Part shown: positions 1 through 10,658 of the stretch, one piece after another
Layout: the number at the start of each line of letters is the position of its first letter
How positions within the stretch are numbered: position 1 is the stretch's first letter
Source of the DNA: an uncultured Opitutia bacterium
Lineage (GTDB): Bacteria > Verrucomicrobiota > Verrucomicrobiia > Opitutales > Opitutaceae
Assembly (NCBI GenBank): GCA_903834135.1
Contig: CAILHZ010000007.1
Span: forward strand, 62,001-126,000
DNA: 64,000 bases
Direction: 5' to 3'
Notes under the pieces: model-generated
What the model was told of the DNA's origin: nothing
Databases searched by the model: none
The model's input: only the letters and a program-made list of their open reading frames with translations
Program-made: the position numbers and the translations under genes

Positions 1-1077
1 AAGCCTATATTTCCAATACGCTTAAGAAGAGCTCCCACCTCACAATTACCAGGTGAAACGACAGCTCCATATCAGCCCGATTACGAACTGCCTGAACTCA
101 TTTCATCTGAAGCCTTCTCTATTTCAGATATTACAAATCGCACTCAAGCTGCTCACGACTATGTAGCTAAAATTGTAGAGCGCTCATCGTATGGATGGTT
201 TCAGCCTTTCGTAGAAGGAAAAGCAAATATCTTTATAGGTACACGAGGCGGTGCAGAATGGTCTGGAGCAGCAGTAGATGTTCCAACAGGACGTTTGTAT
301 GTGACCTCAAACAGGATCCCTTCAATTATTACTGTCTTCACCCCTGAAAATGAAGAACGAGATCCCCATTATGCAGCCTCAAAGGGAGAAACTCTATACC
401 TTCAAAATTGTGCACCCTGCCATGGAGCATCGCGTTTAGGTACAGGTATGGTACCACCATTAATTTCACTGCATAAACGCATGACAGACACTGAAGTAAT
501 GACGCTTTTAAAAACAGGCAGAGCTGCAATGCCAGCAGCTCTTACGCTCGATGATCAAGCAAAGAGAGATGTGATAGACTTTCTATTTCATAGAAATCAG
601 CCACCTGTTCGCAAGGTCAAAGCAACTGGAAAAAAAGACGGAGGCATCTATTCATTTACTGGCTACAATTTCTTACTGGATAACGAAGGCTACCCTGGAA
701 TCAAACCACCCTGGGGACTACTTAATTGCTACGACCTAAGTACAGGTAAAGTATTATGGCGTGTTCCTTTAGGTGAGTATCCTGAACTTACCGCACAAGG
801 TGTTCCTAAAACGGGTTCTCAAAATTTAGGCGGAGCTAGCGTTACAGCAGGTGGACTTGTTTTTTGTGCAGGTACACAAGACAATAAAATCAGAGCTTTT
901 GATACCGATACAGGTGAAGAACTCTGGTCGAGTACTCTTCCCTTCGCAGGTTACGCAGCACCTGCAATATATGAAGTTAACGGTAAGGAATATGTTGTGA
1001 TTGCTGCCAGTGGTGGAGGGAAAGTCGGGGGTACTTTAGGTGACACCTATGTCGCATTCACACTTAAGAATAATTGA
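1..1077 (+). CDS. PQQ-dependent dehydrogenase with inserted cytochrome c domain, 3' part only
   Basis: The reading frame is open from base 1, so the N-terminus lies outside the window; 358 residues are visible. The visible start (KPIFPIRLRRAP... PDYELPEL) and the end (tryptophan-docking blades with DLSTGKVLWRVPLGEYPEL, GGLVFCAGTQDNKIRAFDTDTGEELW and SGGGKVGGTLGDTYVAF) are typical of beta-propeller quinoproteins that oxidise sugars or alcohols in the periplasm. A heme c site CAPCH (bases about 409-423) and a candidate distal Met ligand in GRAAMPA form a cytochrome c module set into the propeller. Electrons would therefore pass from PQQ to heme c and on to periplasmic cytochromes. Substrate cannot be told. 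It sits at the edge of a cytochrome-rich island. Confidence 0.85.
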   Translation, partial: KPIFPIRLRRAPTSQLPGETTAPYQPDYELPELISSEAFSISDITNRTQAAHDYVAKIVERSSYGWFQPFVEGKANIFIGTRGGAEWSGAAVDVPTGRLYVTSNRIPSIITVFTPENEERDPHYAASKGETLYLQNCAPCHGASRLGTGMVPPLISLHKRMTDTEVMTLLKTGRAAMPAALTLDDQAKRDVIDFLFHRNQPPVRKVKATGKKDGGIYSFTGYNFLLDNEGYPGIKPPWGLLNCYDLSTGKVLWRVPLGEYPELTAQGVPKTGSQNLGGASVTAGGLVFCAGTQDNKIRAFDTDTGEELWSSTLPFAGYAAPAIYEVNGKEYVVIAASGGGKVGGTLGDTYVAFTLKNN

Positions 1078-1193
1078 TAAGCACTGGTTAAGTAACCCAA
1101 TTAAAATCAGTAAGTAATGCAATTATTGAGAAGTAATAAGTTTCATCACTCTGGCGTTGGACTTTTAGATAATTGCGCATAAGTTTATTTTCT

Positions 1194-1880
1194 ATGTCGA
1201 AAACAATTTTAGTATGTGGCTATGGAACAGGAATATCAGCGGCTGTTGCTAAACACTTCGGCTCACACGGCTTTTCAGTCGCTCTTATTGCTCGTGACGA
1301 AAAGAAATTAACTGCTGCTGCAGCAGAACTAAATAAACAGGGAATTAAAGCTCACGCATTCCCAACAGATGTAGGCAATACAAACGCAGTTACTGAAATG
1401 ATTGCTCATGTGCGAAAGACCTTGGGATCAGTTACTGTCATTCACTGGAATGCTTACTCAGGCTTAGCAGGTGATGTGACGACAGCTCCCCTATCTGAGC
1501 TTCAAACTAATTTTAATGTCGGTGTAACTGGTCTAGTTGCTGCCGTTCAGGCAGCACTCCCTGATTTAAAAGCTTCAAAACAATCAGCTGTCTTAGTTAC
1601 AGGCGGAGGCTTTGCATATTACGGTCCTGAAACTGATTCGCTTATTTCACAGTGGAATGCAATGGGGCTCTCAATCACAAAAGCAGCTCAGCACAAATTA
1701 ACAGGTATTCTCACTGCTAAACTCAGCCAAGAAGGAATCTATGTTGGTGAGGTTGTTGTTACAGGTATGGTCAAAGGAACAGCCTTCGATTCTGGTAATG
1801 CAAAACTGGAGGCCTCTGCTATAGCAGCAAAATTCTATGAACTGTATACAGCTCGCACTGTAAACACAGTTAATATCTAA
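1194..1880 (+). CDS. SDR-fold protein lacking the catalytic Tyr
   Basis: The 228-residue protein has the short-chain dehydrogenase/reductase fold: a beta-alpha-beta NAD(P) region at residues 4-20 (ILVCGYGTGISAAVAKHF), ARDEKKL at the end of strand 2, and FPTDVGN at the adenine pocket. The active site is degenerate. In the usual YxxxK position the Lys is present (K163) but the Tyr is Leu (L159), the usual Ser lies in a Gly-rich VTGGGFAYYG stretch, and the third Gly of GxxxGxG is Ser15. It may bind a nucleotide without normal oxidoreductase activity, or use another residue. An in-frame TTG at 1173 exists, but ATG 1194 gives the normal SDR N-terminus. Function is unknown. Confidence 0.75.
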   Translation: MSKTILVCGYGTGISAAVAKHFGSHGFSVALIARDEKKLTAAAAELNKQGIKAHAFPTDVGNTNAVTEMIAHVRKTLGSVTVIHWNAYSGLAGDVTTAPLSELQTNFNVGVTGLVAAVQAALPDLKASKQSAVLVTGGGFAYYGPETDSLISQWNAMGLSITKAAQHKLTGILTAKLSQEGIYVGEVVVTGMVKGTAFDSGNAKLEASAIAAKFYELYTARTVNTVNI

Positions 1881-1900
1881 ACTCAATAACGAGTTTAGAT
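1875..1900 (+). terminator. hairpin at the end of the SDR gene
   Basis: A perfect 10-bp stem (ATCTAAACTC / GAGTTTAGAT) with loop AATAAC overlaps the stop codon. The following tract is T-rich but interrupted (TATATTCTTAATT). It lies between convergent genes and may work in both directions, weakly. Confidence 0.5.
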
Positions 1901-1927
1901 TATATTCTTAATTACCTGTAAAAGCAC

Positions 1928-2263
1928 TTACTTCTTAAGTGTTCTGACATAAGCGACTAAGTCTTTTATATCTGAATCTGAAAGTGTTTCCGCAAATGCC
2001 TTCATGCGGATTTTTCCATTCTTATCCTGCAAGCCATCTTTGATCTGCTTGGCTGCATCAGCATCTGTAAAAGTGTTTTGGTAATCGGCGTTACTTAGAT
2101 CCTTAACCCCTGCCATACGACCGGCTTTAGTGTGACCACCGCCGTCTTTACCATGGCATGAGGCACAACTTTTAGTCCAGTTTTCTGTCACATCAGCACA
2201 TGCAATTGAGCTGACTACTGTTAATCCAAGTACACAGGCTAGAGTTTTAAAAGTTAGGCGCAT
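1928..2263 (-). CDS. periplasmic monoheme cytochrome c (class I)
   Basis: A 111-residue small cytochrome with a signal peptide (about residues 1-23, ending ACA), one heme c site C33ASCH37, the usual GKDGGGHTKAGRMAG loop, and a C-terminal helix SDSDIKDLVAYVRTLKK. The Met ligand is probably in KIRMKAF. It resembles the soluble c5/c553-type carriers that shuttle electrons between membrane complexes and terminal acceptors. It is transcribed away from the pentaheme cytochrome gene and is a candidate soluble partner for the PQQ dehydrogenase or for the NrfD module next door. Confidence 0.88.
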   Translation of the reverse strand: MRLTFKTLACVLGLTVVSSIACADVTENWTKSCASCHGKDGGGHTKAGRMAGVKDLSNADYQNTFTDADAAKQIKDGLQDKNGKIRMKAFAETLSDSDIKDLVAYVRTLKK

Positions 2264-2347
2264 AAAATGTAAGGTTATAAGATTAAGTTAATTGTGACGC
2301 CTAGTATCAACGCCCCAAATCGCTAGTACTGTCAAAAGGCATCATTA

Positions 2348-2393
2348 TGCAGCATTTGTTAACTACTACGCATATTTAGACGATGATGCTGCA
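2348..2393. other. inverted repeat in divergent intergenic region
   Basis: In the 216-bp gap between the divergent monoheme and pentaheme cytochrome genes, TGCAGCAT (2348-2355) is repeated inverted as ATGCTGCA (2386-2393), 30 bases apart. It could be a pair of regulator half-sites or chance. No clear promoter was seen. Confidence 0.25.
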
Positions 2394-2479
2394 ATTAAAG
2401 CATACACCAAGATATGCGTAGCAATGACCAAGCGATAGAAAGCGAAGTCTAATCATTTCAGGTAAAGTTTGCTCACCAG

Positions 2480-3238
2480 ATGAGCGACAATTCTAAAACA
2501 ACATGGATGTTTGGCATCCTAACGTGCGTATTTATATGCCTTACGATTTATTTCGTTCGCTCCCCTATTCTCTATCCCCACGTGTATCAGAAGCCTGTAG
2601 TGCCATCTGCTCGTCTTGCAGGAATACCTAGTGGTACAATTCGTATCTCTGCAGCCCAACTGATTAAAAGTGGAGCAGATGTTTCAGGACTAGATTGTTA
2701 CGCCTGCCACGACCCCAAGCATCCTCCCGTCATCAAATTTGCTTTAGATGGCCAGGTTATCCTTCCCAAAGAACATACGGATCTCATCTACAGCATGCGA
2801 AATTGTGAAGAATGTCACTCACAGGAGAAGCCACAGAAAATTCAGTATAATCCTGATGGCAGTACGAACATTCCTAAAGCACACCAGGATCTAATGCAGA
2901 TGGCGCATGGGAAAGCAGTTAAAAATAATAATTGCTACAACTGTCACAACGAGAACCAACTTAATACTCTTCACTCCTCTACAGGCAAAAAGTTAAATTT
3001 TGATCAAGCCACACAACTATGTGCAGGTTGTCACGGCACAATCTATGAAGATTGGTTAGCAGGTTCACATGGTAGAACAGAAGGCTACTGGGATCACAAA
3101 TTAGGTCCTGCACGTAAGCAGGAATGTTCATCATGCCATGACCCACACGCTCCATCATTCACAGGAATCATACCTATGCCTGGTCCGCATCTGCTGCACC
3201 CAGAAGATGCTCCTGATACACACAATTCTACTCCTTAA
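2480..3238 (+). CDS. membrane-anchored pentaheme cytochrome c
   Basis: 252 residues. An N-terminal membrane anchor (about residues 9-26, WMFGILTCVFICLTIYFV) is followed by a periplasmic domain with exactly five CXXCH sites: CYACH at 73, CEECH at 109, CYNCH at 152, CAGCH at 181 and CSSCH at 216. Extra His residues (HPP, HGK, HGR, HDPHAP) can be distal ligands. Multiheme anchored cytochromes of this size partner Fe-S and NrfD subunits in Qrc-, Dsr- and alternative complex III-like quinone modules, and the next two genes are such subunits. It is the first gene of a tight four-gene operon (gaps of 5, 6 and 17 bp). It would pass electrons between the quinone module and periplasmic cytochromes. Confidence 0.88.
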   Translation: MSDNSKTTWMFGILTCVFICLTIYFVRSPILYPHVYQKPVVPSARLAGIPSGTIRISAAQLIKSGADVSGLDCYACHDPKHPPVIKFALDGQVILPKEHTDLIYSMRNCEECHSQEKPQKIQYNPDGSTNIPKAHQDLMQMAHGKAVKNNNCYNCHNENQLNTLHSSTGKKLNFDQATQLCAGCHGTIYEDWLAGSHGRTEGYWDHKLGPARKQECSSCHDPHAPSFTGIIPMPGPHLLHPEDAPDTHNSTP

Positions 3239-3243
3239 TTTCT

Positions 3244-4173
3244 ATGGCTGATCTCAATACAGAAGAAGGTATCACACGTCGCAGCTTCCTACGTGCAACA
3301 ACAGCAGCTGCAGCAGGAGCTGCGGCTTTAACCTCAGCTTTAGCACCACTGCGTAATATAGGCGACTTCCCCTCGGTAGAAGAATTTATCCAGAAGCACT
3401 ACACAGAACTTACACCTGCCCAACTTACGACGGTTTTAGGGCGTATCGAAAATGAAGTTCAAAAAGAATATGGGATTAGACCTCACGTACGCGCCTTAAA
3501 GCCAATGAACGGCGTAGAGTTTGTCTATGCGCTTAATTTAAGTCGATGCTGCGGATGTCGTAAATGTGTGCACGCCTGTGTTGCTGAAAACAATCAGTCT
3601 CGCAGTCCTGAAGTGCAATATATTCGGGTTCTGAAAATGCCTAATGATGGGCGTTTTGATTTAGAAAGTGGTGATCATAACTACAATCCAGAATCAGTTC
3701 CTGTACCCGGGCATTTTTTCATGCCTATTCAGTGTCATCATTGTAAAAACCCTCCCTGTGTTAAGGTCTGCCCTGTTAAAGCAACGTGGCAAGAACCAGA
3801 TGGCATCACAGTGATCGACTACGACTGGTGTATTGGATGCCGCTACTGCGAAGCAGCCTGCCCTTATTTTGCACGCCGTTTTAATTTTACAGAACCATCT
3901 ATACCTAAGGAAAAAATTAATCCTAATATGTCTTATCTGGGAAATAGACCTAGGCACAAAGGTGTCATGGAAAAATGCCATTTCTGTGTTCAGCGCACCC
4001 GAGCAGGACAATACCCAGCATGTCTTGAAGCATGCCCAACAGGATCCCGTAAATTTGGTAATATTTTAGATCCCGATAGTGAGGTATCCTATATTTTAAA
4101 GAATAAACGTGTCATGATACTAAAGGAGGAGCTCGGTACACTCCCACGTTTCTTCTACTACTTTGACGTTTAA
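3244..4173 (+). CDS. Tat-exported four-cluster ferredoxin subunit (NrfC/HybA/DmsB-like)
   Basis: 309 residues. A twin-arginine signal (TRRSFLRATTAAAAGAAAL, about residues 11-30) is followed by four Cys groups: CCGCRKCVHAC (from about residue 102), CHHCKNPPCVKVCP, CIGCRYCEAACP, and CHFCVQ with CLEACP. This is the layout of four [4Fe-4S] clusters in NrfC/HybA/DmsB subunits. It is folded in the cytoplasm and exported. It starts 5 bp after the pentaheme gene and ends 6 bp before the NrfD-like gene, so the three form one membrane module. No molybdopterin or other catalytic subunit gene is present in the window, so the module seems to be a pure electron wire between quinone and cytochromes. There is no C-terminal membrane helix. 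Confidence 0.9.
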   Translation: MADLNTEEGITRRSFLRATTAAAAGAAALTSALAPLRNIGDFPSVEEFIQKHYTELTPAQLTTVLGRIENEVQKEYGIRPHVRALKPMNGVEFVYALNLSRCCGCRKCVHACVAENNQSRSPEVQYIRVLKMPNDGRFDLESGDHNYNPESVPVPGHFFMPIQCHHCKNPPCVKVCPVKATWQEPDGITVIDYDWCIGCRYCEAACPYFARRFNFTEPSIPKEKINPNMSYLGNRPRHKGVMEKCHFCVQRTRAGQYPACLEACPTGSRKFGNILDPDSEVSYILKNKRVMILKEELGTLPRFFYYFDV

Positions 4174-4179
4174 AGCTCC

Positions 4180-5409
4180 ATGAAAAGATATCTCTACTTT
4201 TGGAAACGTTGCCTAAAAATCGCCTTTGTAGGCGATTGGCGCTACTATGGATGGCTTGGTATACTGCTGATTATTATTCTAGGAGGTGTGAATGCGTATG
4301 CTAAGCAGTACCTGCTAGGGCTAGGCACAACTGGAATGAGTGATCAAGTATCATGGGGAGTATACATCGCTAACTTCACTTTCTTAGTCGGTATGGCTGC
4401 AGCTGCTGTCATGCTAGTAATTCCTGTCTATATTTACAAAAATGAGGAGCTACATGATCTAGTCATCTTTGGTGAACTACTCGCTGTAGCTGCCATTCTT
4501 ATGTGCCTAGCATTCGTGACGGTTGATTTAGGAAGACCGGATCGGTTTTGGCATTTAATTCCAGGAATTGGTATTTTTCATTTTCCTGGCTCCATGCTAA
4601 GCTGGGACGTTCTAGTATTAAACGGCTACTTATTAATTAATCTGCATATTTGCGGTTACCATATCTATTGCCGCTACTGCGGAAGAAAACCTTCTAACTG
4701 GCTTTCTATTCCAGTTGTATTTCTAGGTATTTTATGGGCTGTATCCATTCATACAATTACCGCATTTCTTTATGTGGGACTTGGAGGACGTCACTTCTGG
4801 AATTCGGCTGTACTAGGACCTCGTTTTATTGCTTCAGCCTTCACTGCAGGGCCAGCATTTATTATACTCACACTACAAATCATTCGCCAATTTTCAGATT
4901 ACCACGTACCAGACCGAGCCCTATTTACCCTAAGATCAATTGTTCAGATCGCTATGCCGATTAACATGTTCTTATTAATTAACGAACTGTTCACTGAATT
5001 CTATACAACAGATCGCAACTCAGCTTCGTCACATTATTTGTTTCTAGGCCTGCATGGCCATCATGCTCTAGTTCCTTGGATTTGGACTGCGATTGGACTC
5101 AATATAACTTCGATGATTTTACTCATGCTCCCATTAAGCAGACGCTTAAAGTGGCTAGACACAGCCTGCATTCTAGCTGTGATCGGCATTTGGATTGAAA
5201 AAGGCATGGGGATGGTCGTTCCCGGATTTGTGCCTACACCCATTGGTGAAATCGTAGAATATACTCCTTCGAAAAATGAAGTTCTTATCTGCCTAGGGAT
5301 TTGGGCTTTTGGATTTTTCTGTTATACGATCTTCCTGCGTATGGCAGTACCTATTCTACACGGGAAGTTGTCGCGTGCGAATGAACCTGCAGAAGCAAAT
5401 CTAACTTAA
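4180..5409 (+). CDS. NrfD/PsrC-like quinone-binding membrane subunit
   Basis: 409 residues with about nine or ten hydrophobic helices. WGVYIANFTFLVGMAAAAV near residues 60-80 and the DLGRPDRFWHLIPG motif after helix 3 are marks of the NrfD/PsrC/HybB family. These subunits bind menaquinone or ubiquinone in the inner membrane and exchange electrons with the partner ferredoxin. Together with the two upstream genes it would make a quinol:cytochrome c oxidoreductase (or the reverse, if electrons come from outside). Direction cannot be read from sequence. Confidence 0.9.
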   Translation: MKRYLYFWKRCLKIAFVGDWRYYGWLGILLIIILGGVNAYAKQYLLGLGTTGMSDQVSWGVYIANFTFLVGMAAAAVMLVIPVYIYKNEELHDLVIFGELLAVAAILMCLAFVTVDLGRPDRFWHLIPGIGIFHFPGSMLSWDVLVLNGYLLINLHICGYHIYCRYCGRKPSNWLSIPVVFLGILWAVSIHTITAFLYVGLGGRHFWNSAVLGPRFIASAFTAGPAFIILTLQIIRQFSDYHVPDRALFTLRSIVQIAMPINMFLLINELFTEFYTTDRNSASSHYLFLGLHGHHALVPWIWTAIGLNITSMILLMLPLSRRLKWLDTACILAVIGIWIEKGMGMVVPGFVPTPIGEIVEYTPSKNEVLICLGIWAFGFFCYTIFLRMAVPILHGKLSRANEPAEANLT

Positions 5410-5426
5410 GTTAAACATCTATCGTC

Positions 5427-5963
5427 ATGGTACAAACTAAACAGCCAGCCATTGATTTAAGCCTGAACGCTGCGCATCTGTCTTTAACCGATCATGTAAT
5501 TATGAAAGGAAATGAAATATTTGAGAAATACGGCCCTAAAATTGGTTGGAGCGAATTACAAAAGATTATCGTCGATAAAGAATGTGTGCGGTACCCTCTT
5601 GATATCGTATTTGATTCAGTAGCGCTGGAGAATGATGAAATTGCTTACCCCTCTGCTAAAGGAGATCTACCTGAAGACGGCTTTACGCTTTATATTCATC
5701 CCTACTTTTCCTTAGATCCAACACGCATTCCAGCAATTGCTCTATACCAATTAGTACTGATCAACTACGGAACATTTGCTTCACCTGGAGATGCTGAAGC
5801 GTTTGGCGCAGCTGCACTTGGAATCGATATCGAAGCATACTATGCACAGCTATGCGAAATCGCAGATGAAATTAGCACTAAACACTTTGTCGATGAACCT
5901 GTGTTACCCGAAGTGGCCCATCAAGGATGTTCGAGTGGCGGCTCTTGCGGTTGTAGTCACTAA
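5427..5963 (+). CDS. unknown protein with Cys-rich C-terminal tail, last gene of the quinone-module operon
   Basis: 178 residues, family not recognised. It has no signal peptide or membrane helix, so it is probably cytoplasmic. The body is acidic with a conserved-looking core (YPLDIVFDSVALENDEIAYP and FTLYIHPYFSLDPTRIP). The C-terminus ends in a metal-ligand-like tail, GCSSGGSCGCSH, with three Cys and a final His. It starts 17 bp after the NrfD-like gene, which suggests co-expression. Possible roles are an Fe-S or metal chaperone for the exported ferredoxin, or an assembly factor for the complex; both are inference. Its stop codon overlaps that of hemN by 3 bases. Confidence 0.7.
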   Translation: MVQTKQPAIDLSLNAAHLSLTDHVIMKGNEIFEKYGPKIGWSELQKIIVDKECVRYPLDIVFDSVALENDEIAYPSAKGDLPEDGFTLYIHPYFSLDPTRIPAIALYQLVLINYGTFASPGDAEAFGAAALGIDIEAYYAQLCEIADEISTKHFVDEPVLPEVAHQGCSSGGSCGCSH

Positions 5964-7390
5964 ACTGTCTTGGAGTGCTTGTTAGCACCTTCAACCCAAG
6001 TAGCGTCAAAACGCATCGCAACCACACGCATTAAAGGCACACCACGGGGAGTTATCTCTATACCGTGGATATCACTAAGTAGGAGTCCATCCTCCTTAAG
6101 ATCTTTAAGCCCACCGATTTCTTTAGCATAAAGTTGCGTAACATCTATGCCTAACTCTTTAGATAAAGCTGCGTAGTTTAATTTGCGATCACACATAAGG
6201 CGCATAATTAAGGTTCTACGCCGTTTGTCATCATCAGTTAGAATTAGAGCCTTCTCCGTTGGTAACTTTCCTGAACGTACGGCGCTTCGCCACTGATCAA
6301 TATCTTTAAAGTTTTGCCTGTAACTATTTTCAGTTGAAGAAATTGAAGAGACGCCAAACCCATATAACGAAGCTCCAGCTTCCGTACTATAGCCCTGAAA
6401 GTTCCTGTGTAGGGTACCTTTCTTTTGAGCAAGGGCTAGTTCATCACCGGGTTTAGCAAAGTGATCCAAACCGATATCGATATACCCTGCCTGAGTAAGT
6501 TTTTTGTGAGCAACTGAAAACATGGCTAACTTATCACTCGCACTGGGCAATTGATTACGTGTTACAAAAATAAGCTGTGCTGGTTTAAGCCACGGCACAT
6601 GAGCGTAACTAAAAATAGATAATCGTTCAGGATTAAGTGTGAGTATATCATTAATAGTCTGAGCAAAAGTATCACGCGTTTGCAGAGGTAGCCCAAAGAT
6701 TAAATCGACATTAATAGATTTAAATCCTGCAGCTCGTAGCCAGCTGAAGGCTTGCTCGTTTGTATTCATCGGCTGCCAGCGGTGTATAGCCAGCTGGACA
6801 TCTGGATTCGTATCCTGAATGCCAAGTGAAGCCCTATTTGCACCAATTTGCTTTAATGCATGCACATGCTCTTCAGTTAACCTACGTGGATCAATTTCAA
6901 CTCCGAACTCAACTAATTCACTGAGAGTAAAATATTTTCGAATCAAAACTCCAAGTCTTAGCAGTTCCTTCGGAGGTAGGAAAGTCGGTGTCCCACCACC
7001 AAAATGAATCTGGGTTACCTTACGACTTGGATTCACCTTGCAAGCAACAAGGGCCATCTCCTTTTCTATATCATCAAGATAAATAGAAGCTTCTTCTTTG
7101 TGAGTAGTAATCACCGTATTACATCCACAGTACCAGCACAGCGATTCACAAAAGGGCAGATGAAAATACAGTGATATAGGACCAGCATTAGGCCCATTAT
7201 CTGTACGCAGCTCCTCATCTAAATTTAAATTATTTAGATCTGTTCTAAATTGTGTGGCTGGTGGATAGGATGTGTAACGAGGACCTGCGATGGAATATTT
7301 TTGAATTAAATCGATATCCAAACCAGTTGCTTGATACGCCACGGGCAGCTCAGTAGTAAGATTCATAAAAGAAGGATTAGCTGCATTCAT
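5960..7390 (-). CDS. hemN: oxygen-independent coproporphyrinogen III oxidase
   Basis: 476 residues from ATG 7390 (an in-frame TTG at 7411 is less likely). It is a radical SAM enzyme that decarboxylates coproporphyrinogen III to protoporphyrinogen IX in anaerobic heme synthesis. Visible marks are RYTSYPPATQF near the N-terminus, the cluster motif CESLCWYCGC with its extra Cys, HFGGGTPTFL, GVEIDPRRLT, RASLGIQD and NVDLIFGLP, as in true HemN rather than HemW. The C-terminal HemN domain (RRRTLIMRLMCDRKLNY) is present. It sits between two cytochrome gene groups on the opposite strand, which fits a high heme demand under low oxygen. Confidence 0.93.
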   Translation of the reverse strand: MNAANPSFMNLTTELPVAYQATGLDIDLIQKYSIAGPRYTSYPPATQFRTDLNNLNLDEELRTDNGPNAGPISLYFHLPFCESLCWYCGCNTVITTHKEEASIYLDDIEKEMALVACKVNPSRKVTQIHFGGGTPTFLPPKELLRLGVLIRKYFTLSELVEFGVEIDPRRLTEEHVHALKQIGANRASLGIQDTNPDVQLAIHRWQPMNTNEQAFSWLRAAGFKSINVDLIFGLPLQTRDTFAQTINDILTLNPERLSIFSYAHVPWLKPAQLIFVTRNQLPSASDKLAMFSVAHKKLTQAGYIDIGLDHFAKPGDELALAQKKGTLHRNFQGYSTEAGASLYGFGVSSISSTENSYRQNFKDIDQWRSAVRSGKLPTEKALILTDDDKRRRTLIMRLMCDRKLNYAALSKELGIDVTQLYAKEIGGLKDLKEDGLLLSDIHGIEITPRGVPLMRVVAMRFDATWVEGANKHSKTV

Positions 7391-7505
7391 CTTAGATGAA
7401 AATAACAGCAAGATCTGCGCGGTGCTTGCTCATCTGTAGGCATTACTTGCACAGTGCGCTCTATAGGCTAATCAGATTTGTAGTTAAACTTATAAATCGG
7501 GCAAA

Positions 7506-7540
7506 AATTGCGCGCAGCTTGGCAATTCGCGCGCAGCTTG
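7506..7540. repeat. tandem direct repeat upstream of the multiheme cytochrome gene
   Basis: GCGCGCAGCTTG occurs twice (7510-7521 and 7529-7540), 19 bp apart, each preceded by AATT. It lies in the 235-bp region between the divergent hemN and the MtrA-like gene. Spacing near two helix turns fits a tandem operator. No known regulator site was recognised. Confidence 0.45.
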
Positions 7541-7614
7541 AATTTGAACGTTCTGCGATACTCAAAGTAAGGAAAATTCTAGGGCTTAGTGCTCTATCTT
7601 ACTTCGAAAACAAT

Positions 7615-7620
7615 TATACT
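7615..7620 (+). promoter_or_regulatory. possible -10 element, near-leaderless start
   Basis: TATACT lies 5 bases before the ATG of the MtrA-like gene. No good -35 lies at the usual distance. If used, transcription would begin at or next to the start codon. Confidence 0.3.
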
Positions 7621-7625
7621 GCGCA

Positions 7626-8426
7626 ATGAATCCGCCCCCTAAAAAATCTACGCAACGAATCGTCATTGGTGCGATCGTTGTGTGGTCAGCCTTGATTATA
7701 TCCTGCGTTACAGCTGAACGCATTATTGTCGCTCCTGCACACGTAGCAGGCGCAACCTACGTAGGCAGTAAAGAGTGCGCACAATGTCATTCAGATAAAA
7801 CCGACCACTTTGCTGGGGCTACCCATGCAAGACTTCATATTTCAGATGTTAAGCTTGGAGACACGACCTGTGAAGCATGTCATGGTCCTGCAAGTTTACA
7901 TATTCAATCTGGCGGTAAACTTGGGACTATCGTCAATCCCAGGAAAAACCCTGAAGCCTGTTTTGCTTGTCACTTAGATAAACGTGGAGAAATGAGTCTA
8001 CCGCATACTCATCCTGTCTTAGCTGGTAAAGTTAGCTGTGTGGATTGTCACGATGTACATAAGGATAAATCTGTACGTGGAGGCGGTGCCGCACTCGCAG
8101 CATCGACTGAAACTTGCCTTAAGTGCCATACTCAACAAGCAGGACCTTTCACCTACCCTCATGGCGCAATCAAAGAAGAAGGATGTCTTGCCTGCCACAA
8201 TCCTCACGGAACAGTGAACGACAAAATGCTTATCGCACGTGATGCTAATCTGTGCCTGAGATGCCATCTCTCACAACTCACACCAGGATTTAATATCGGC
8301 GGATTCAAAACCGGTGGAGCACACGCCAATGCAGTGGGCTCTCGCCTTTCAGAAGGCGCCTGCTGGTCAGCTGGATGTCACGAAGGCGTCCACGGCTCTA
8401 ACGTCAATGCATCCCTTAGACCTTAA
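7626..8426 (+). CDS. MtrA/DmsE-like multiheme cytochrome c (eight heme sites)
   Basis: 266 residues. The N-terminal export signal (KKSTQRIVIGAIVVWSALIISC) has a lipobox-like LIISC, so it could be a lipoprotein or anchored. Seven CXXCH sites lie at residues 51, 82, 112, 138, 164, 187 and 210, and an eighth, unusual CX4CH site (CWSAGCH) lies at 246. CHNPHGT and CHDVHK are doubled-CXXCH family features of MtrA/DmsE/PioA periplasmic cytochromes, which plug into an outer-membrane barrel and carry electrons across the outer membrane. Known MtrA and DmsE have ten hemes, so this is a shorter relative. The barrel-like gene follows 21 bp later. Confidence 0.85.
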   Translation: MNPPPKKSTQRIVIGAIVVWSALIISCVTAERIIVAPAHVAGATYVGSKECAQCHSDKTDHFAGATHARLHISDVKLGDTTCEACHGPASLHIQSGGKLGTIVNPRKNPEACFACHLDKRGEMSLPHTHPVLAGKVSCVDCHDVHKDKSVRGGGAALAASTETCLKCHTQQAGPFTYPHGAIKEEGCLACHNPHGTVNDKMLIARDANLCLRCHLSQLTPGFNIGGFKTGGAHANAVGSRLSEGACWSAGCHEGVHGSNVNASLRP

Positions 8427-8447
8427 TTCTTTCGCACGACACCTCGT

Positions 8448-10658
8448 ATGAAAACAAACCTTATTTCCTTTAAGCACGTGTCCCGGCTAGTCTTGGGCGT
8501 TACTCTTACGCACTTCGCAAGCCTGTCATTCACACAAACTCCGCCACCTAACGCTGATGCATTCCCTACTTTTGAGTCCTACATCAAAGTATCAGGAGTT
8601 GCTCCATTCACAACGGGGGATAACGCCGCTTACGCCATGCGCCAAGGCAGTCCTACAGCAGGTTCAGGAGGCATTGAAGACTTCTACTATACAAAAGATA
8701 CATCGGATACGACGACAGTGGTATCTAAAGGCCACGCACTAGCAGGTGCAGAGGATTATCTTGCTAGTGTGAATGTAACGACAGCCAATATGGGATCAAT
8801 AGAGGCGGGCTATAAAGTATTTCGTACTTTCTATGACGGAATAGGTGGATTTTTTCCTCAAAGTAACACCTTTCAAAAACTCGGCCACGAAGAACTCCAT
8901 ACTGACCGTGGTTCATTTTGGTTCAACGTCACTTTAGCAAAACCAGATCGCCCTGTATTCAATGTTAATTTTCAAGCAGACACACGCACGGGCAAAAAAG
9001 ACTCTACTATATGGGCTGCTATCATATCTCCTACTGCTACAGTAACCAATGGGATTTTAGTAGGTAATACTGTTCCAGCGAATACACCATTCATTGCTCC
9101 CAATGTCTTAAATATGAATGAGCACCATGAAGAACTACAGGCAAGTGTTGTAGTCACGTCGGGTAAGGTTAAAGAAACACTCAAAGGAGCAATCAATTGG
9201 ATTAATAATAACGACTATCGCAGCTATGTTAAAAATCCAGGTTCAAACGTAATCGCTAGCCCAGAAGTGACTGTTCTTGATGACCAAGAATTAATCCATT
9301 CTACAAACTTTCGTATCCTAAACCAAATTGAAGCTAAATTAAACGACAAGCTTGGTTGGGACATAGCAGCAACATACGATCATCAATTTAGTACAAATGG
9401 CGGCCAATGGATTACACCTGCCTATAGCGCTACGGATGCTAGTACATATCCAGCAGTTACAGCAGGAAATATTTACGGAAAAGCTAAGGTAGACGATTAC
9501 GTTGCGAATACTTTTTTGCATTATAATCCCACCAAAAATTGGACTACAGATATAGGAATAAGAGATGAATATAAAGTGATATCTAGCCGCGGTGGATTTA
9601 TCACCACTTCACTGGCAACTGGATCAACAAGTACTGCTGCAAGTAATTTAACCGTGGCTAATGATCTTACCTATTCTCACGAAACTGAGCATGTAGATAC
9701 ACCAGAGCTCAGCCTACAGTACTTAGGAATTTCTAACATGACGGTTTATTTGAATGCAGACTACCGAATTAATCATGCTAACCAACACTGGATCAACCCC
9801 TATGCAGCTTCAACTGTTGCAGGCATCACCGGTGTAGCAACTACAGCCTTTGCACCTGCTGGGTCTGTATTCTTCCAAGAAGCAGATCAAAACAATAAAG
9901 ATTTGAAAGTAGGCTTAAACTGGAGTCCATCTCGCATCATTACAATTCGTGCAGAAATTTTCCGTAAAGATCATCAAAATCAGTACGTTGGTTCCAGTGA
10001 CTTAATTGGCATTGGAAGTACAGGTGGCCTTTATGCAACAGGCTATACCTTCACGGGAATGAAGTTTAACGTCCAAATTAAACCAACCCAAACACTAAGC
10101 TTTAATACACGCTTCCAGCCCCAACATGGGAGCATGTCTGTACTTGGTAATACAGTCACAGGTGGTTTAGGAAACGAAATTACTTCTGGAGTAGTCACTG
10201 GCTCGTTACTCAGTGAAAGTATAGACTGGAGTCCAAAACCTTGGCTTTACACAGAAGGCAATGTGAACTTTGTCTACAATTCGATCCAAACAGCATACCC
10301 CTACGTAACCGTGGCAACACCACCCGCTGCAATTGGTACTCCTATTGCAAATGCAGATAATAATTACGTGACTGCAATGCTACTGGCTGGATTTGTAATC
10401 GACAAACAAACCGACGCAAATATCCAAGGCCTACTTACTCGTGCTACTAATTATAACCGCCAAATCATGATGGGAGGAATTCCATATGGTGCAGCATTCT
10501 ATGAGAGAAGTATCACCGTTGGACTAAAGCATAAATTAAGTGACCGTATGTTTGCTGAAGGCAAAGTCGGTTACCTGGATAGACAAGATGCAACCGCAGG
10601 CGGATTCACAAATTACAAAGGCCCTTTAGTTTACCTATCTCTTACCTGCGCACTTTAA
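8448..10658 (+). CDS. large outer-membrane beta-barrel, MtrB/PioB-like candidate
   Basis: 736 residues with a signal peptide (about 1-29, VTLTHFASLSFTQ). The rest is rich in alternating polar/hydrophobic strands, aromatic residues and Asn/Thr/Gly turns, for example TLSFNTRFQPQHG, TIRAEIFRKDHQNQYVG and SITVGLKHKLSDRMFAEGKVGYL. There is no TonB box or plug domain. Length and position directly after a multiheme cytochrome match MtrB/PioB/DmsF sleeves. Sequence identity to that family could not be tested here, so the family name rests on fold impression plus context. It would form the pore that holds the upstream cytochrome. No MtrC/OmcA surface cytochrome gene follows. Confidence 0.6.
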   Translation: MKTNLISFKHVSRLVLGVTLTHFASLSFTQTPPPNADAFPTFESYIKVSGVAPFTTGDNAAYAMRQGSPTAGSGGIEDFYYTKDTSDTTTVVSKGHALAGAEDYLASVNVTTANMGSIEAGYKVFRTFYDGIGGFFPQSNTFQKLGHEELHTDRGSFWFNVTLAKPDRPVFNVNFQADTRTGKKDSTIWAAIISPTATVTNGILVGNTVPANTPFIAPNVLNMNEHHEELQASVVVTSGKVKETLKGAINWINNNDYRSYVKNPGSNVIASPEVTVLDDQELIHSTNFRILNQIEAKLNDKLGWDIAATYDHQFSTNGGQWITPAYSATDASTYPAVTAGNIYGKAKVDDYVANTFLHYNPTKNWTTDIGIRDEYKVISSRGGFITTSLATGSTSTAASNLTVANDLTYSHETEHVDTPELSLQYLGISNMTVYLNADYRINHANQHWINPYAASTVAGITGVATTAFAPAGSVFFQEADQNNKDLKVGLNWSPSRIITIRAEIFRKDHQNQYVGSSDLIGIGSTGGLYATGYTFTGMKFNVQIKPTQTLSFNTRFQPQHGSMSVLGNTVTGGLGNEITSGVVTGSLLSESIDWSPKPWLYTEGNVNFVYNSIQTAYPYVTVATPPAAIGTPIANADNNYVTAMLLAGFVIDKQTDANIQGLLTRATNYNRQIMMGGIPYGAAFYERSITVGLKHKLSDRMFAEGKVGYLDRQDATAGGFTNYKGPLVYLSLTCAL

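What the first reader, a model, noticed from the sequence alone, without database searches (positions are those of the whole stretch)
1..10658. Possible extracellular electron transfer island in a Verrucomicrobiota-like genome
Seen: a heme-containing PQQ dehydrogenase, monoheme cytochrome c, pentaheme cytochrome, four-cluster ferredoxin, NrfD-like subunit, hemN, an eight-heme MtrA-like cytochrome and a 736-residue barrel-like protein within about 10 kb. Established: MtrA/PioA/DmsE cytochromes inside MtrB/PioB/DmsF barrels move electrons across the outer membrane; NrfD modules exchange electrons with quinones. Inference: the island links the quinone pool to the cell surface, in either direction (metal or humic reduction, or Fe(II) oxidation).
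Basis: partly seen in the sequence, partly recalled or inferred. Interest (0 to 1): 0.82.

Follow-up and report, generated by a model that had tools for sequence, protein, structure and literature searches.

The report
Shortened MtrAB-type outer-membrane electron conduit
A bacterium of the phylum Verrucomicrobiota carries a pared-down relative of the MtrA/MtrB outer-membrane electron wire beside a quinone-to-cytochrome module, so it can probably pass respiratory electrons to or from material outside the cell, a known kind of system in an under-studied phylum.

Summary
The 7626 product is an MtrA-family cytochrome with eight hemes; it lacks hemes 3 and 4 of the decaheme type and has a lipobox. 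The 8448 product, missed by Pfam MtrB_PioB, matches decaheme-linked barrels by profile (98-99.9%; controls 0.2-17%), models as a 26-strand barrel and hits MtrB first in the PDB.

Among 95 genomes the pair is adjacent in all 35 with a strong cytochrome hit. ImcH-type quinol oxidases occur in 31 of these 35 and 0 of the other 60. The window's genome has neither ImcH nor CbcL; its candidate gate is the CbcSTU/SirCD-like NrfD module at 2480-5963. The PQQ dehydrogenase is not part (1 of 35 loci); hemN is a same-genus neighbour (4 of 35). Direction is unproven; outward is favoured.

He et al. 2017 already reported porin plus eight-heme clusters in Verrucomicrobia, as not homologous to Shewanella or Geobacter systems. 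The homology to MtrAB, the missing heme pair and the exchange of gates are added here. New variant of a known kind.

The parts
1928..2263 (-). Monoheme class I cytochrome c, probable periplasmic shuttle
   Evidence: PF00034 48.4 bits; a homologue (60 bits or more) lies in 23 of 35 loci with the barrel
2480..3238 (+). Pentaheme cytochrome with N-terminal hydrophobic stretch (cytochrome subunit of the quinone module)
   Evidence: five CXXCH; PF09699; NrfB-like PF22678 20.1 bits, below its cut-off of 27
3244..4173 (+). Iron-sulfur subunit with twin-arginine motif and four [4Fe-4S] groups, DsrO/CbcT/NrfC-like
   Evidence: NF045797 DsrO 176 bits (cut-off 200), TIGR03149 NrfC 104 bits (cut-off 378); four cysteine groups and RRSF
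4180..5409 (+). NrfD-type membrane quinone subunit, DsrP-like
   Evidence: PF03916 135.8 bits; NF045798 415 bits, cut-off 350
5427..5963 (+). Conserved protein of unknown function with Cys/His-rich tail; accompanies the NrfD gene
   Evidence: no Pfam or NCBIfam hit; present in the same 14 of 35 loci as NrfD
5960..7411 (-). hemN, oxygen-independent coproporphyrinogen III oxidase; same-genus neighbour, not core
   Evidence: TIGR00538 518 bits; in 4 of 35 loci at 300 bits or more, the window included
7626..8426 (+). Octaheme MtrA-family cytochrome, predicted lipoprotein (core)
   Evidence: 6r2q_A E 3.4e-28; TIGR03508 140 bits, cut-off 192; lacks hemes 3 and 4 of the decaheme type; lipobox-like Cys, invariant column, 29 of 29
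8448..10658 (+). 26-strand outer-membrane barrel, MtrB-like sheath (core)
   Evidence: model pLDDT 78, pTM 0.73; best PDB hit 6r2q_B E 1.6e-12; profile match to decaheme-linked barrels
1..1077 (+). C-terminal part of a PQQ dehydrogenase with cytochrome c domain; neighbour, judged not part of the unit
   Evidence: PF01011, PF13442; found at 150 bits or more in 1 of 35 loci, the window only

Best explanation
The unit is a porin-cytochrome conduit for extracellular electron transfer, a diverged and shortened branch of MtrAB, fed by an NrfD-type quinone module. Proposed flow: quinol -> NrfD (4180) -> four-cluster FeS protein (3244) -> anchored pentaheme cytochrome (2480) -> monoheme cytochrome (1928) -> lipid-anchored octaheme cytochrome (7626) held inside the 26-strand barrel (8448) -> an acceptor outside the cell such as humic quinones or Fe(III). 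Shown by computation: family membership, adjacency, co-occurrence, barrel fold, heme count. Inferred: the order of carriers, insertion of the cytochrome into the barrel, the acceptor, and the outward direction (about 2 to 1 over inward). Since the genome keeps aa3- and cbb3-type oxidases, the pathway is most likely a supplement used when oxygen is short.
For: Cytochrome homologous to crystallised MtrA. Barrel directly downstream on the same strand in 34 of 34 loci that hold both (35 loci from 33 genomes; one is cut by a contig end), in 35 of 35 genomes with a strong cytochrome hit once two divergent barrels are counted, and in 36 of 36 named octaheme loci, seven of them found only by tblastn and four of these cut or in pieces. 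Barrel profile against decaheme-linked barrels: 98.2, 99.1 and 99.9%; the same sets reversed 16.8, 1.0 and 1.1%; TonB receptors 0.7 and 0.2%. 26 strands, helix between strands 1 and 2, short first strands, as described for MtrB (passages). ImcH-like protein in 31 of 35 genomes with the cytochrome and 0 of 60 without; CbcL-like 24 of 35 and 0 of 60. In the fetched loci: NrfD 14 of 35, ImcH 15, either 24. Own genome: PF02335 (NrfA) hits only two other multiheme proteins; the only PF00384 hit is a NuoG-like protein; alternative complex III for aerobic respiration is encoded elsewhere (ActD PF11821 219.7 bits).
Against: No experiment. The octaheme model failed (pLDDT 41), so its fit inside the barrel was not modelled. 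PF11854 does not hit the barrel; the Foldseek margin over TonB receptors is only about two orders of magnitude in E-value; the barrel profile against itself reversed gives 78.4%, so barrel repeats can score. No surface cytochrome lies beside the pair. NrfD also occurs in 3 of 60 genomes without the cytochrome and is missing in 11 of 35 with it. Trait associations are not corrected for ancestry beyond counting genera (ImcH 22 of 25 against 0 of 56), and weaker hits were dropped before counting (the Full report section). One octaheme protein of the own genome passes the PF02335 cut-off in sum (26.5-27.1 bits, cut-off 24.1), though it has eight CXXCH and no CXXCK. PF00384 also misses the ActB-like protein, so it can miss diverged Mo enzymes. 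The genome is an aerobe with three COX1-type genes, which also allows inward flow.
Confidence: 0.8

Rival explanations
1. Same conduit run inward: an MtoAB/PioAB-like pathway that takes electrons from Fe(II) or reduced humics and passes them to quinone or to the aerobic oxidases.
For: No surface MtrC-like cytochrome is beside the pair, as in PioAB/MtoAB (passages of PMC6344600). The genome has aa3- and cbb3-type oxidases. NrfD modules can in principle run either way (recalled).
Against: In 31 of 35 genomes the pair travels with ImcH-type proteins, which the ImcH survey found only in Fe(III)-reducing bacteria and took as quinol oxidases (PMC6295460 abstract); the window's own genome has none. 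Passages of PMC8805035 say that MtrAB, MtoAB and PioAB do not separate by function on their trees, so sequence alone cannot settle it.
Confidence: 0.25
2. The NrfD operon is not the partner of the conduit but serves another periplasmic acceptor (nitrite, sulfur compounds or a Mo reductase), and the two operons are neighbours by accident.
For: NrfD present without the cytochrome in 3 of 60 genomes and absent in 11 of 35 with it. It passes the NCBIfam DsrP cut-off. An octaheme protein elsewhere in the genome passes the PF02335 cut-off in sum.
Against: That octaheme protein has no CXXCK motif and carries HEAT and TPR repeats; only a NuoG-like protein hits PF00384; no DsrM, K or J among the ten proteins scanned at 1-10658. 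Module and pair lie in one locus in 14 of 35. A FeS/NrfD pair (SirCD) replaces CymA for ferric citrate in Shewanella (PMC11434368 passage).
Confidence: 0.15
3. A DmsEF-like conduit that feeds an extracellular terminal reductase rather than minerals or humics.
For: The cytochrome scores with the DmsE model TIGR03508 (140 bits, below its cut-off of 192).
Against: No PF00384 hit in the genome beyond the NuoG-like protein and none among the ten proteins scanned around the pair. The relatives' loci were not searched for one.
Confidence: 0.05
4. The barrel is an ordinary porin or uptake channel and the cytochrome acts in the periplasm only.
For: The barrel has no Pfam, NCBIfam or PDB sequence hit; TonB receptors are the next structural hits.
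Against: Profile match to decaheme-linked barrels with low controls, adjacency wherever both genes could be read, and the same barrel fused to a cytochrome domain in 8 named relatives.
Confidence: 0.07

Closest known systems
MtrA/MtrB of Shewanella (crystal structure 6R2Q) and their MtoAB/PioAB/DmsEF relatives
   Same: MtrA-family multiheme cytochrome directly upstream of a 26-strand barrel; helix between strands 1 and 2; short first strands
   Different: Eight hemes instead of ten (hemes 3 and 4 missing), last heme motif CX4CH, lipobox-like Cys, no PF11854 hit, no MtrC gene beside it
Verrucomicrobial porin-multiheme cytochrome clusters of He et al. 2017 (PMC5615132; abstract, passages and a figure legend seen)
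   Same: Porin gene clustered with an eight-heme periplasmic cytochrome in Verrucomicrobia, including Opitutus terrae; proposed for EET to humics. Probably the same family: relative G015 is a single contig of 5,957,605 bases, which I recall as the size of O. terrae PB90-1
   Different: They state that systems homologous to the Shewanella and Geobacter ones are absent; the profile and structure tests here say it is a diverged MtrAB. Several of their clusters carry an extracellular cytochrome; the window does not. No direct sequence comparison with their genes was made
CbcSTU (Cbc4) of Geobacter and SirCD of Shewanella
   Same: c-type cytochrome, DsrO-like FeS protein and NrfD-type membrane subunit as a quinol module; SirCD can replace CymA for ferric citrate (PMC11434368 passages)
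   Different: Here a pentaheme cytochrome plus a conserved unknown fourth gene and a linked monoheme cytochrome; no direct sequence comparison with CbcSTU or SirCD was made
NrfBCD of the E. coli nitrite pathway
   Same: pentaheme cytochrome, four-cluster FeS protein and NrfD in one operon (make-up of NrfBCD recalled)
   Different: No clear NrfA in the genome; scores far below the Nrf cut-offs
Geobacter Pcc (OmbB/OmaB/OmcB)
   Same: porin plus octaheme periplasmic cytochrome (start of the PMC4245776 abstract in a listing)
   Different: No outer cytochrome beside it here; homology with OmaB/OmbB not tested

Membership tests
MtrA/DmsE cytochromes | Sequence homology to MtrA | tested here: met
   phmmer to 6r2q_A E 3.4e-28; alignment with eight decaheme homologues
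MtrA/DmsE cytochromes | Score over the curated cut-off of TIGR03508 (DmsE family) | tested here: not met
   140.2 bits against 192.2
MtrA/DmsE cytochromes | Ten hemes | tested here: not met
   seven CXXCH plus one CX4CH; hemes 3 and 4 absent
MtrA/DmsE cytochromes | Gene next to an MtrB-type barrel gene | tested here: met
   34 of 34 loci that hold both genes
MtrB/PioB barrels | Pfam PF11854 hit | tested here: not met
   no hit in the protein or in the genome
MtrB/PioB barrels | Homology to PF11854-type barrels by profile comparison | tested here: met
   98.2% with a nine-member set of which the three tested members hit PF11854; reversed control 16.8%, self-reversed 78.4%
MtrB/PioB barrels | 26 antiparallel strands, helix between strands 1 and 2 | tested here: met
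   predicted model, 26 strands of nine or more residues, against the description of MtrB
MtrB/PioB barrels | N-terminal CXXC motif (recalled for MtrB) | tested here: not met
   single Cys, residue 734
Porin-cytochrome conduit (function) | Electron transfer across the outer membrane | not testable with these tools
   needs protein or mutants
Porin-cytochrome conduit (function) | Cytochrome sits inside the barrel | tested here: inconclusive
   octaheme model unusable, pLDDT 41; no complex prediction on offer
ImcH (relatives only) | 495-519 aa, three N-terminal TM helices, one CX3CH and six CX2CH | tested here: met
   14 of 15 proteins are 497-506 aa with three hydrophobic segments, one CX3CH, six CX2CH; the 15th is cut by the contig end; definition from passages of PMC6295460
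ImcH (window genome) | Presence | tested here: not met
   no match in G000, 94.42% complete
CbcSTU/SirCD-type quinol module | NrfD plus DsrO-like FeS plus c-type cytochrome in one operon | tested here: met
   2480-5409, gaps of 5 and 6 bases
DsrMKJOP | DsrM, K and J beside DsrO/P | tested here: not met
   neighbours are the pentaheme cytochrome, gene 5427 and hemN
MtrC surface cytochrome | Gene beside MtrAB | tested here: not met
   no further multiheme gene in the window; genome-wide the test is partial: PF09699 over its cut-off hits only this island and an octaheme HEAT/TPR protein

The most novel reading that the evidence does not exclude
Verrucomicrobiota, with some Omnitrophota, hold their own old branch of MtrAB: a lipid-tethered eight-heme wire that lost one internal two-heme segment once, works without a surface cytochrome in some species, and is served by exchangeable quinol gates (ImcH, CbcL or a CbcSTU/SirCD-like NrfD module). 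The window species would be a natural minimal case: one gate, one monoheme shuttle and one conduit in a 2.65 Mb genome of an otherwise aerobic cell.
Probability: 0.5. Interest if true: 0.7.

Novelty: new variant of a known kind. Interest (0 to 1): 0.52.

Why it matters
Porin-cytochrome conduits explain how cells trade electrons with minerals, humics and electrodes. If this one works, a phylum found in lakes and soils holds a conduit that two standard models (PF11854, the DmsE cut-off) miss, so EET surveys that rest on them undercount it. The missing heme pair and the swap of inner-membrane gates are natural experiments on how long the wire must be and how it is loaded. Relatives in culture such as Opitutus (named in PMC5615132) make it testable.

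Tried and rejected
Pfam, NCBIfam and PDB sequence searches with the barrel alone gave nothing; PF11854 against the own genome gave nothing. These misses look like limits of sensitivity, since profile comparison succeeds. Structure of the octaheme cytochrome: pLDDT 41, not used. An FNR-like box search (up to two mismatches) found no site in the hemN/7626 intergenic stretch 7412-7625, and the window total was near chance, 57 against a mean of 47.7 in shuffles; promoter scan at chance, 22 against 24.5. Idea that the PQQ dehydrogenase feeds the conduit: dropped, 1 of 35 loci. Idea that the NrfD operon is the cell's alternative complex III: dropped, a separate cluster with a pentaheme cytochrome, an FeS protein with the TAT-variant extension, its own NrfD and ActD lies on contig C13. 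Idea that the NrfD operon serves nitrite or a Mo enzyme: no clear candidate. CbcL-like protein in the own genome: only a hit of E 5e-4 inside the pentaheme gene.

Literature: searches. Opitutaceae + extracellular electron transfer returned no paper; Opitutus + porin + multiheme returned two. Papers were seen as abstracts and found passages, none whole. PMC11475568, PMC12285243, PMC12057145 and PMC12307469 were looked into by term and gave nothing used here. Supplements were not read, and figures are not held, so Fig. 7 of PMC5615132 was seen only through its legend.
Full report
What is there. The window lies at G000:C7:62001-126000 of a 2.65 Mb, 94.42% complete genome. Its family in the collection includes G027, whose contig C19 matches in length and gene position a record named uncultured Opitutae bacterium, so it is a Verrucomicrobiota; the genome itself is not named. 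By position they form two plus-strand operons: 2480-5963 (pentaheme cytochrome, four-cluster FeS protein with a twin-arginine motif, NrfD, unknown gene) and 7626-10658 (octaheme cytochrome, barrel), with hemN on the minus strand between them. A monoheme cytochrome lies divergently upstream at 1928-2263. The PQQ dehydrogenase at 1-1077 is only the C-terminal part.

The cytochrome at 7626. Its best solved relative is chain A of 6R2Q, the Mtr complex (E 3.4e-28; the molecule label of that chain reads cystathionine beta-synthase). It scores 140 bits with the DmsE decaheme model (cut-off 192) and 154 with the GSU2203 decaheme model (cut-off 325). I aligned 29 of the 34 homologues printed (the window included), leaving out one truncated, two with uncertain starts and two close copies. 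All 29 have seven CXXCH and one CX4CH, and an invariant cysteine in a lipobox-like place, so a lipoprotein is likely; several decaheme relatives show such a cysteine too (read). Against eight decaheme homologues, twelve octaheme ones lack one continuous stretch that holds hemes 3 and 4. In a tree of 77 rows (80 named loci plus the window, less L104, L117, L132 and L143, which are cut or fused), 36 of the 37 eight-heme rows fall with one 11-heme Omnitrophota row in a branch of SH-aLRT support 99; the last, L101, joins next to it with support 88. Heme class needs two changes on that tree (quick search, no bootstrap, root not inferred, so loss and gain are not told apart). In the crystal structure the N-terminal side of MtrA protrudes into the periplasm (passages of PMC7198977), so the missing stretch would shorten the periplasmic side; that is inference.

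The barrel at 8448. No Pfam, NCBIfam or PDB sequence hit, and PF11854 finds nothing in the genome. From 20 sequences (the window plus 19 of the 61 downstream frames printed, chosen as octaheme-linked and not fused) AlphaFold2 gave pLDDT 78 and pTM 0.73. I count 26 strands of nine or more residues, a helix at 59-66 between strands 1 and 2, first four strands of 9 to 12 residues, the others 13 to 25. MtrB is described as 26 strands with four shorter first strands and a small helix between strands 1 and 2. Foldseek ranks MtrB (6r2q_B) first, E 1.6e-12, TM 0.46/0.52; TonB receptors follow from 2.2e-10, so this alone is not decisive. Profile comparison with three sets of barrels that follow MtrA-type cytochromes gives 98.2% (E 4.9e-14; the three members tested, L103, L123 and L126, hit PF11854), 99.1% (4.4e-19; the two members tested, L112 and L121, do not) and 99.9% (1.6e-33; the two tested, L093 and L106, do not, and this set holds two octaheme-linked Omnitrophota barrels). 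The first set matches the other two at 99.3 and 99.9%. Reversed, the sets give 16.8, 1.0 and 1.1%; a TonB receptor 0.7%, a two-sequence TonB alignment 0.2%; the query against itself reversed gives 78.4%, a warning that barrel repeats can score.

Co-occurrence. Of 95 genomes (own plus 94), 33 hold the barrel and 38 the cytochrome at E <= 0.001. I dropped three weaker cytochrome hits (G010 9e-4, G043 3e-23, G044 6e-6), leaving 35. The two without a barrel hit, G020 and G041, have a divergent barrel directly downstream: 35 of 35. In 35 fetched loci from 33 genomes, 34 hold both and all 34 have the barrel directly downstream on the same strand; the other is cut by a contig end. In named genomes 36 of 36 octaheme loci have a barrel directly downstream: 29 as an open frame and seven by tblastn, of which three are cut by the contig end and one is in pieces. 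L104 ends inside the cytochrome and is not counted.

Quinone gates. In 15 of 35 loci relatives carry a protein of about 500 aa with three hydrophobic segments, one CX3CH and six CX2CH (14 of 15; the 15th is cut), the published description of ImcH (PMC6295460 passages). It is in 31 of 35 genomes with the cytochrome and 0 of 60 without (36 hits, five weak ones of E 3e-10 to 1e-5 dropped). A CbcL-like protein (13 hemes plus cytochrome b561 domain) is in 24 of 35 and 0 of 60 (31 hits, seven weaker dropped, the strongest G090 at 2e-41). NrfD is in 24 of 35 and 3 of 60 (33 hits, six weak dropped). By genus: ImcH 22 of 25 against 0 of 56. These counts ignore deeper ancestry. PMC6295460 reported no mtrAB beside imcH. 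G045, with the pair, has none of the three gates, and G020 none either. The window's genome has neither ImcH nor CbcL, so the NrfD module is its only candidate of the three.

Why the NrfD module probably feeds the conduit. It lies in the same locus in 14 of 35. In the own genome PF02335 (NrfA) matches only an octaheme HEAT/TPR protein (26.5-27.1 bits in sum, cut-off 24.1; eight CXXCH, no CXXCK) and, weakly, the complex III cytochrome. PF00384 matches only a NuoG-like protein (TIGR01973 430 bits, cut-off 470), though it also misses the ActB-like protein. Alternative complex III has its own genes on C13. There are aa3- and cbb3-type oxidases over their cut-offs, a third COX1-like gene and no bd oxidase. 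A FeS/NrfD pair, SirCD, can replace CymA for ferric citrate, and Geobacter CbcSTU has the same three-part make-up (PMC11434368 passages).

Direction. ImcH linkage in relatives argues for quinol oxidation and outward flow; the absence of a surface cytochrome beside the pair and the aerobic oxidases leave inward flow open. I put outward at about two to one.

A supporting oddity. In eight named loci the barrel that follows the octaheme cytochrome carries an N-terminal PSCyt1 cytochrome domain. The part after that domain matches the window's barrel profile at 100% (reversed 9.1%, TonB 0.1%), so cytochrome and barrel are also joined in one protein in these relatives.

Known or new. He et al. 2017 (PMC5615132, abstract and passages) reported porin plus eight-heme clusters in six Verrucomicrobia MAGs and homologues in Opitutus, proposed EET to humics, and called the porin novel, with no homologues of the Shewanella or Geobacter systems. 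He et al. 2019 (PMC6344600, passages) again lists Verrucomicrobia among carriers of putative new types. The MtrCAB survey PMC8805035 does not contain the word Verrucomicrobi in its main text. So the kind is known; the link to MtrAB, the missing hemes 3 and 4, the lipobox and the exchange of gates are not in the passages I read.

Noticed in passing
L082:10799-13177, L086:10764-13298, L087:1418-3487, L088:10732-13167, L092:10775-13204, L096:6862-9222, L099:10739-13171, L100:10721-13132: In eight loci, mostly Pedosphaera/Limisphaerales-type, the octaheme-linked barrel carries an N-terminal planctomycete cytochrome c domain (PF07635), 8 of 8 by Pfam; the rest matches the barrel profile. A fused cytochrome-porin unlike the Cyc2 I recall.
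   Followed up: partly
L102, L103, L109, L110, L123, L127, L130 (barrels downstream of decaheme cytochromes): These MtrB-like barrels have a CXXCH motif at residues 188-226, perhaps a heme in the barrel protein itself.
   Followed up: no
window 4180-5409 and relatives: In many relatives the NrfD protein has an insert of roughly 160 residues between positions 239 and 242 of the window protein.
   Followed up: no
window 4180-5409: The NrfD protein passes the NCBIfam DsrP equivalog cut-off (415 against 350), so automatic annotation may call it a sulfate-reduction subunit although DsrMKJ is absent from its neighbours.
   Followed up: partly
window 5427-5963: Unknown 178-aa protein with a Cys/His-rich tail, found in the same 14 loci as the NrfD gene; a candidate assembly factor.
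   Followed up: partly
L166:6227-8428 (own genome C16): Octaheme protein with HEAT and TPR repeats that passes the PF02335 cut-off in sum without a CXXCK motif; no NCBIfam hit.
   Followed up: partly
L076:1238-9879: Two cytochrome-barrel pairs in tandem, each followed by a monoheme cytochrome, then an ImcH-like gene.
   Followed up: no
L124: Record labelled Bordetella parapertussis (a MAG) groups tightly with Acidobacteriota Bryobacterales in the cytochrome tree; the bin or its label is probably wrong.
   Followed up: no
PDB 6r2q chain A: Molecule name given as cystathionine beta-synthase although the entry is the Mtr complex and the sequence a multiheme cytochrome.
   Followed up: no
L085:1323-3732: Barrel gene after the octaheme cytochrome matches in three pieces, by sequencing error or decay.
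   Followed up: no
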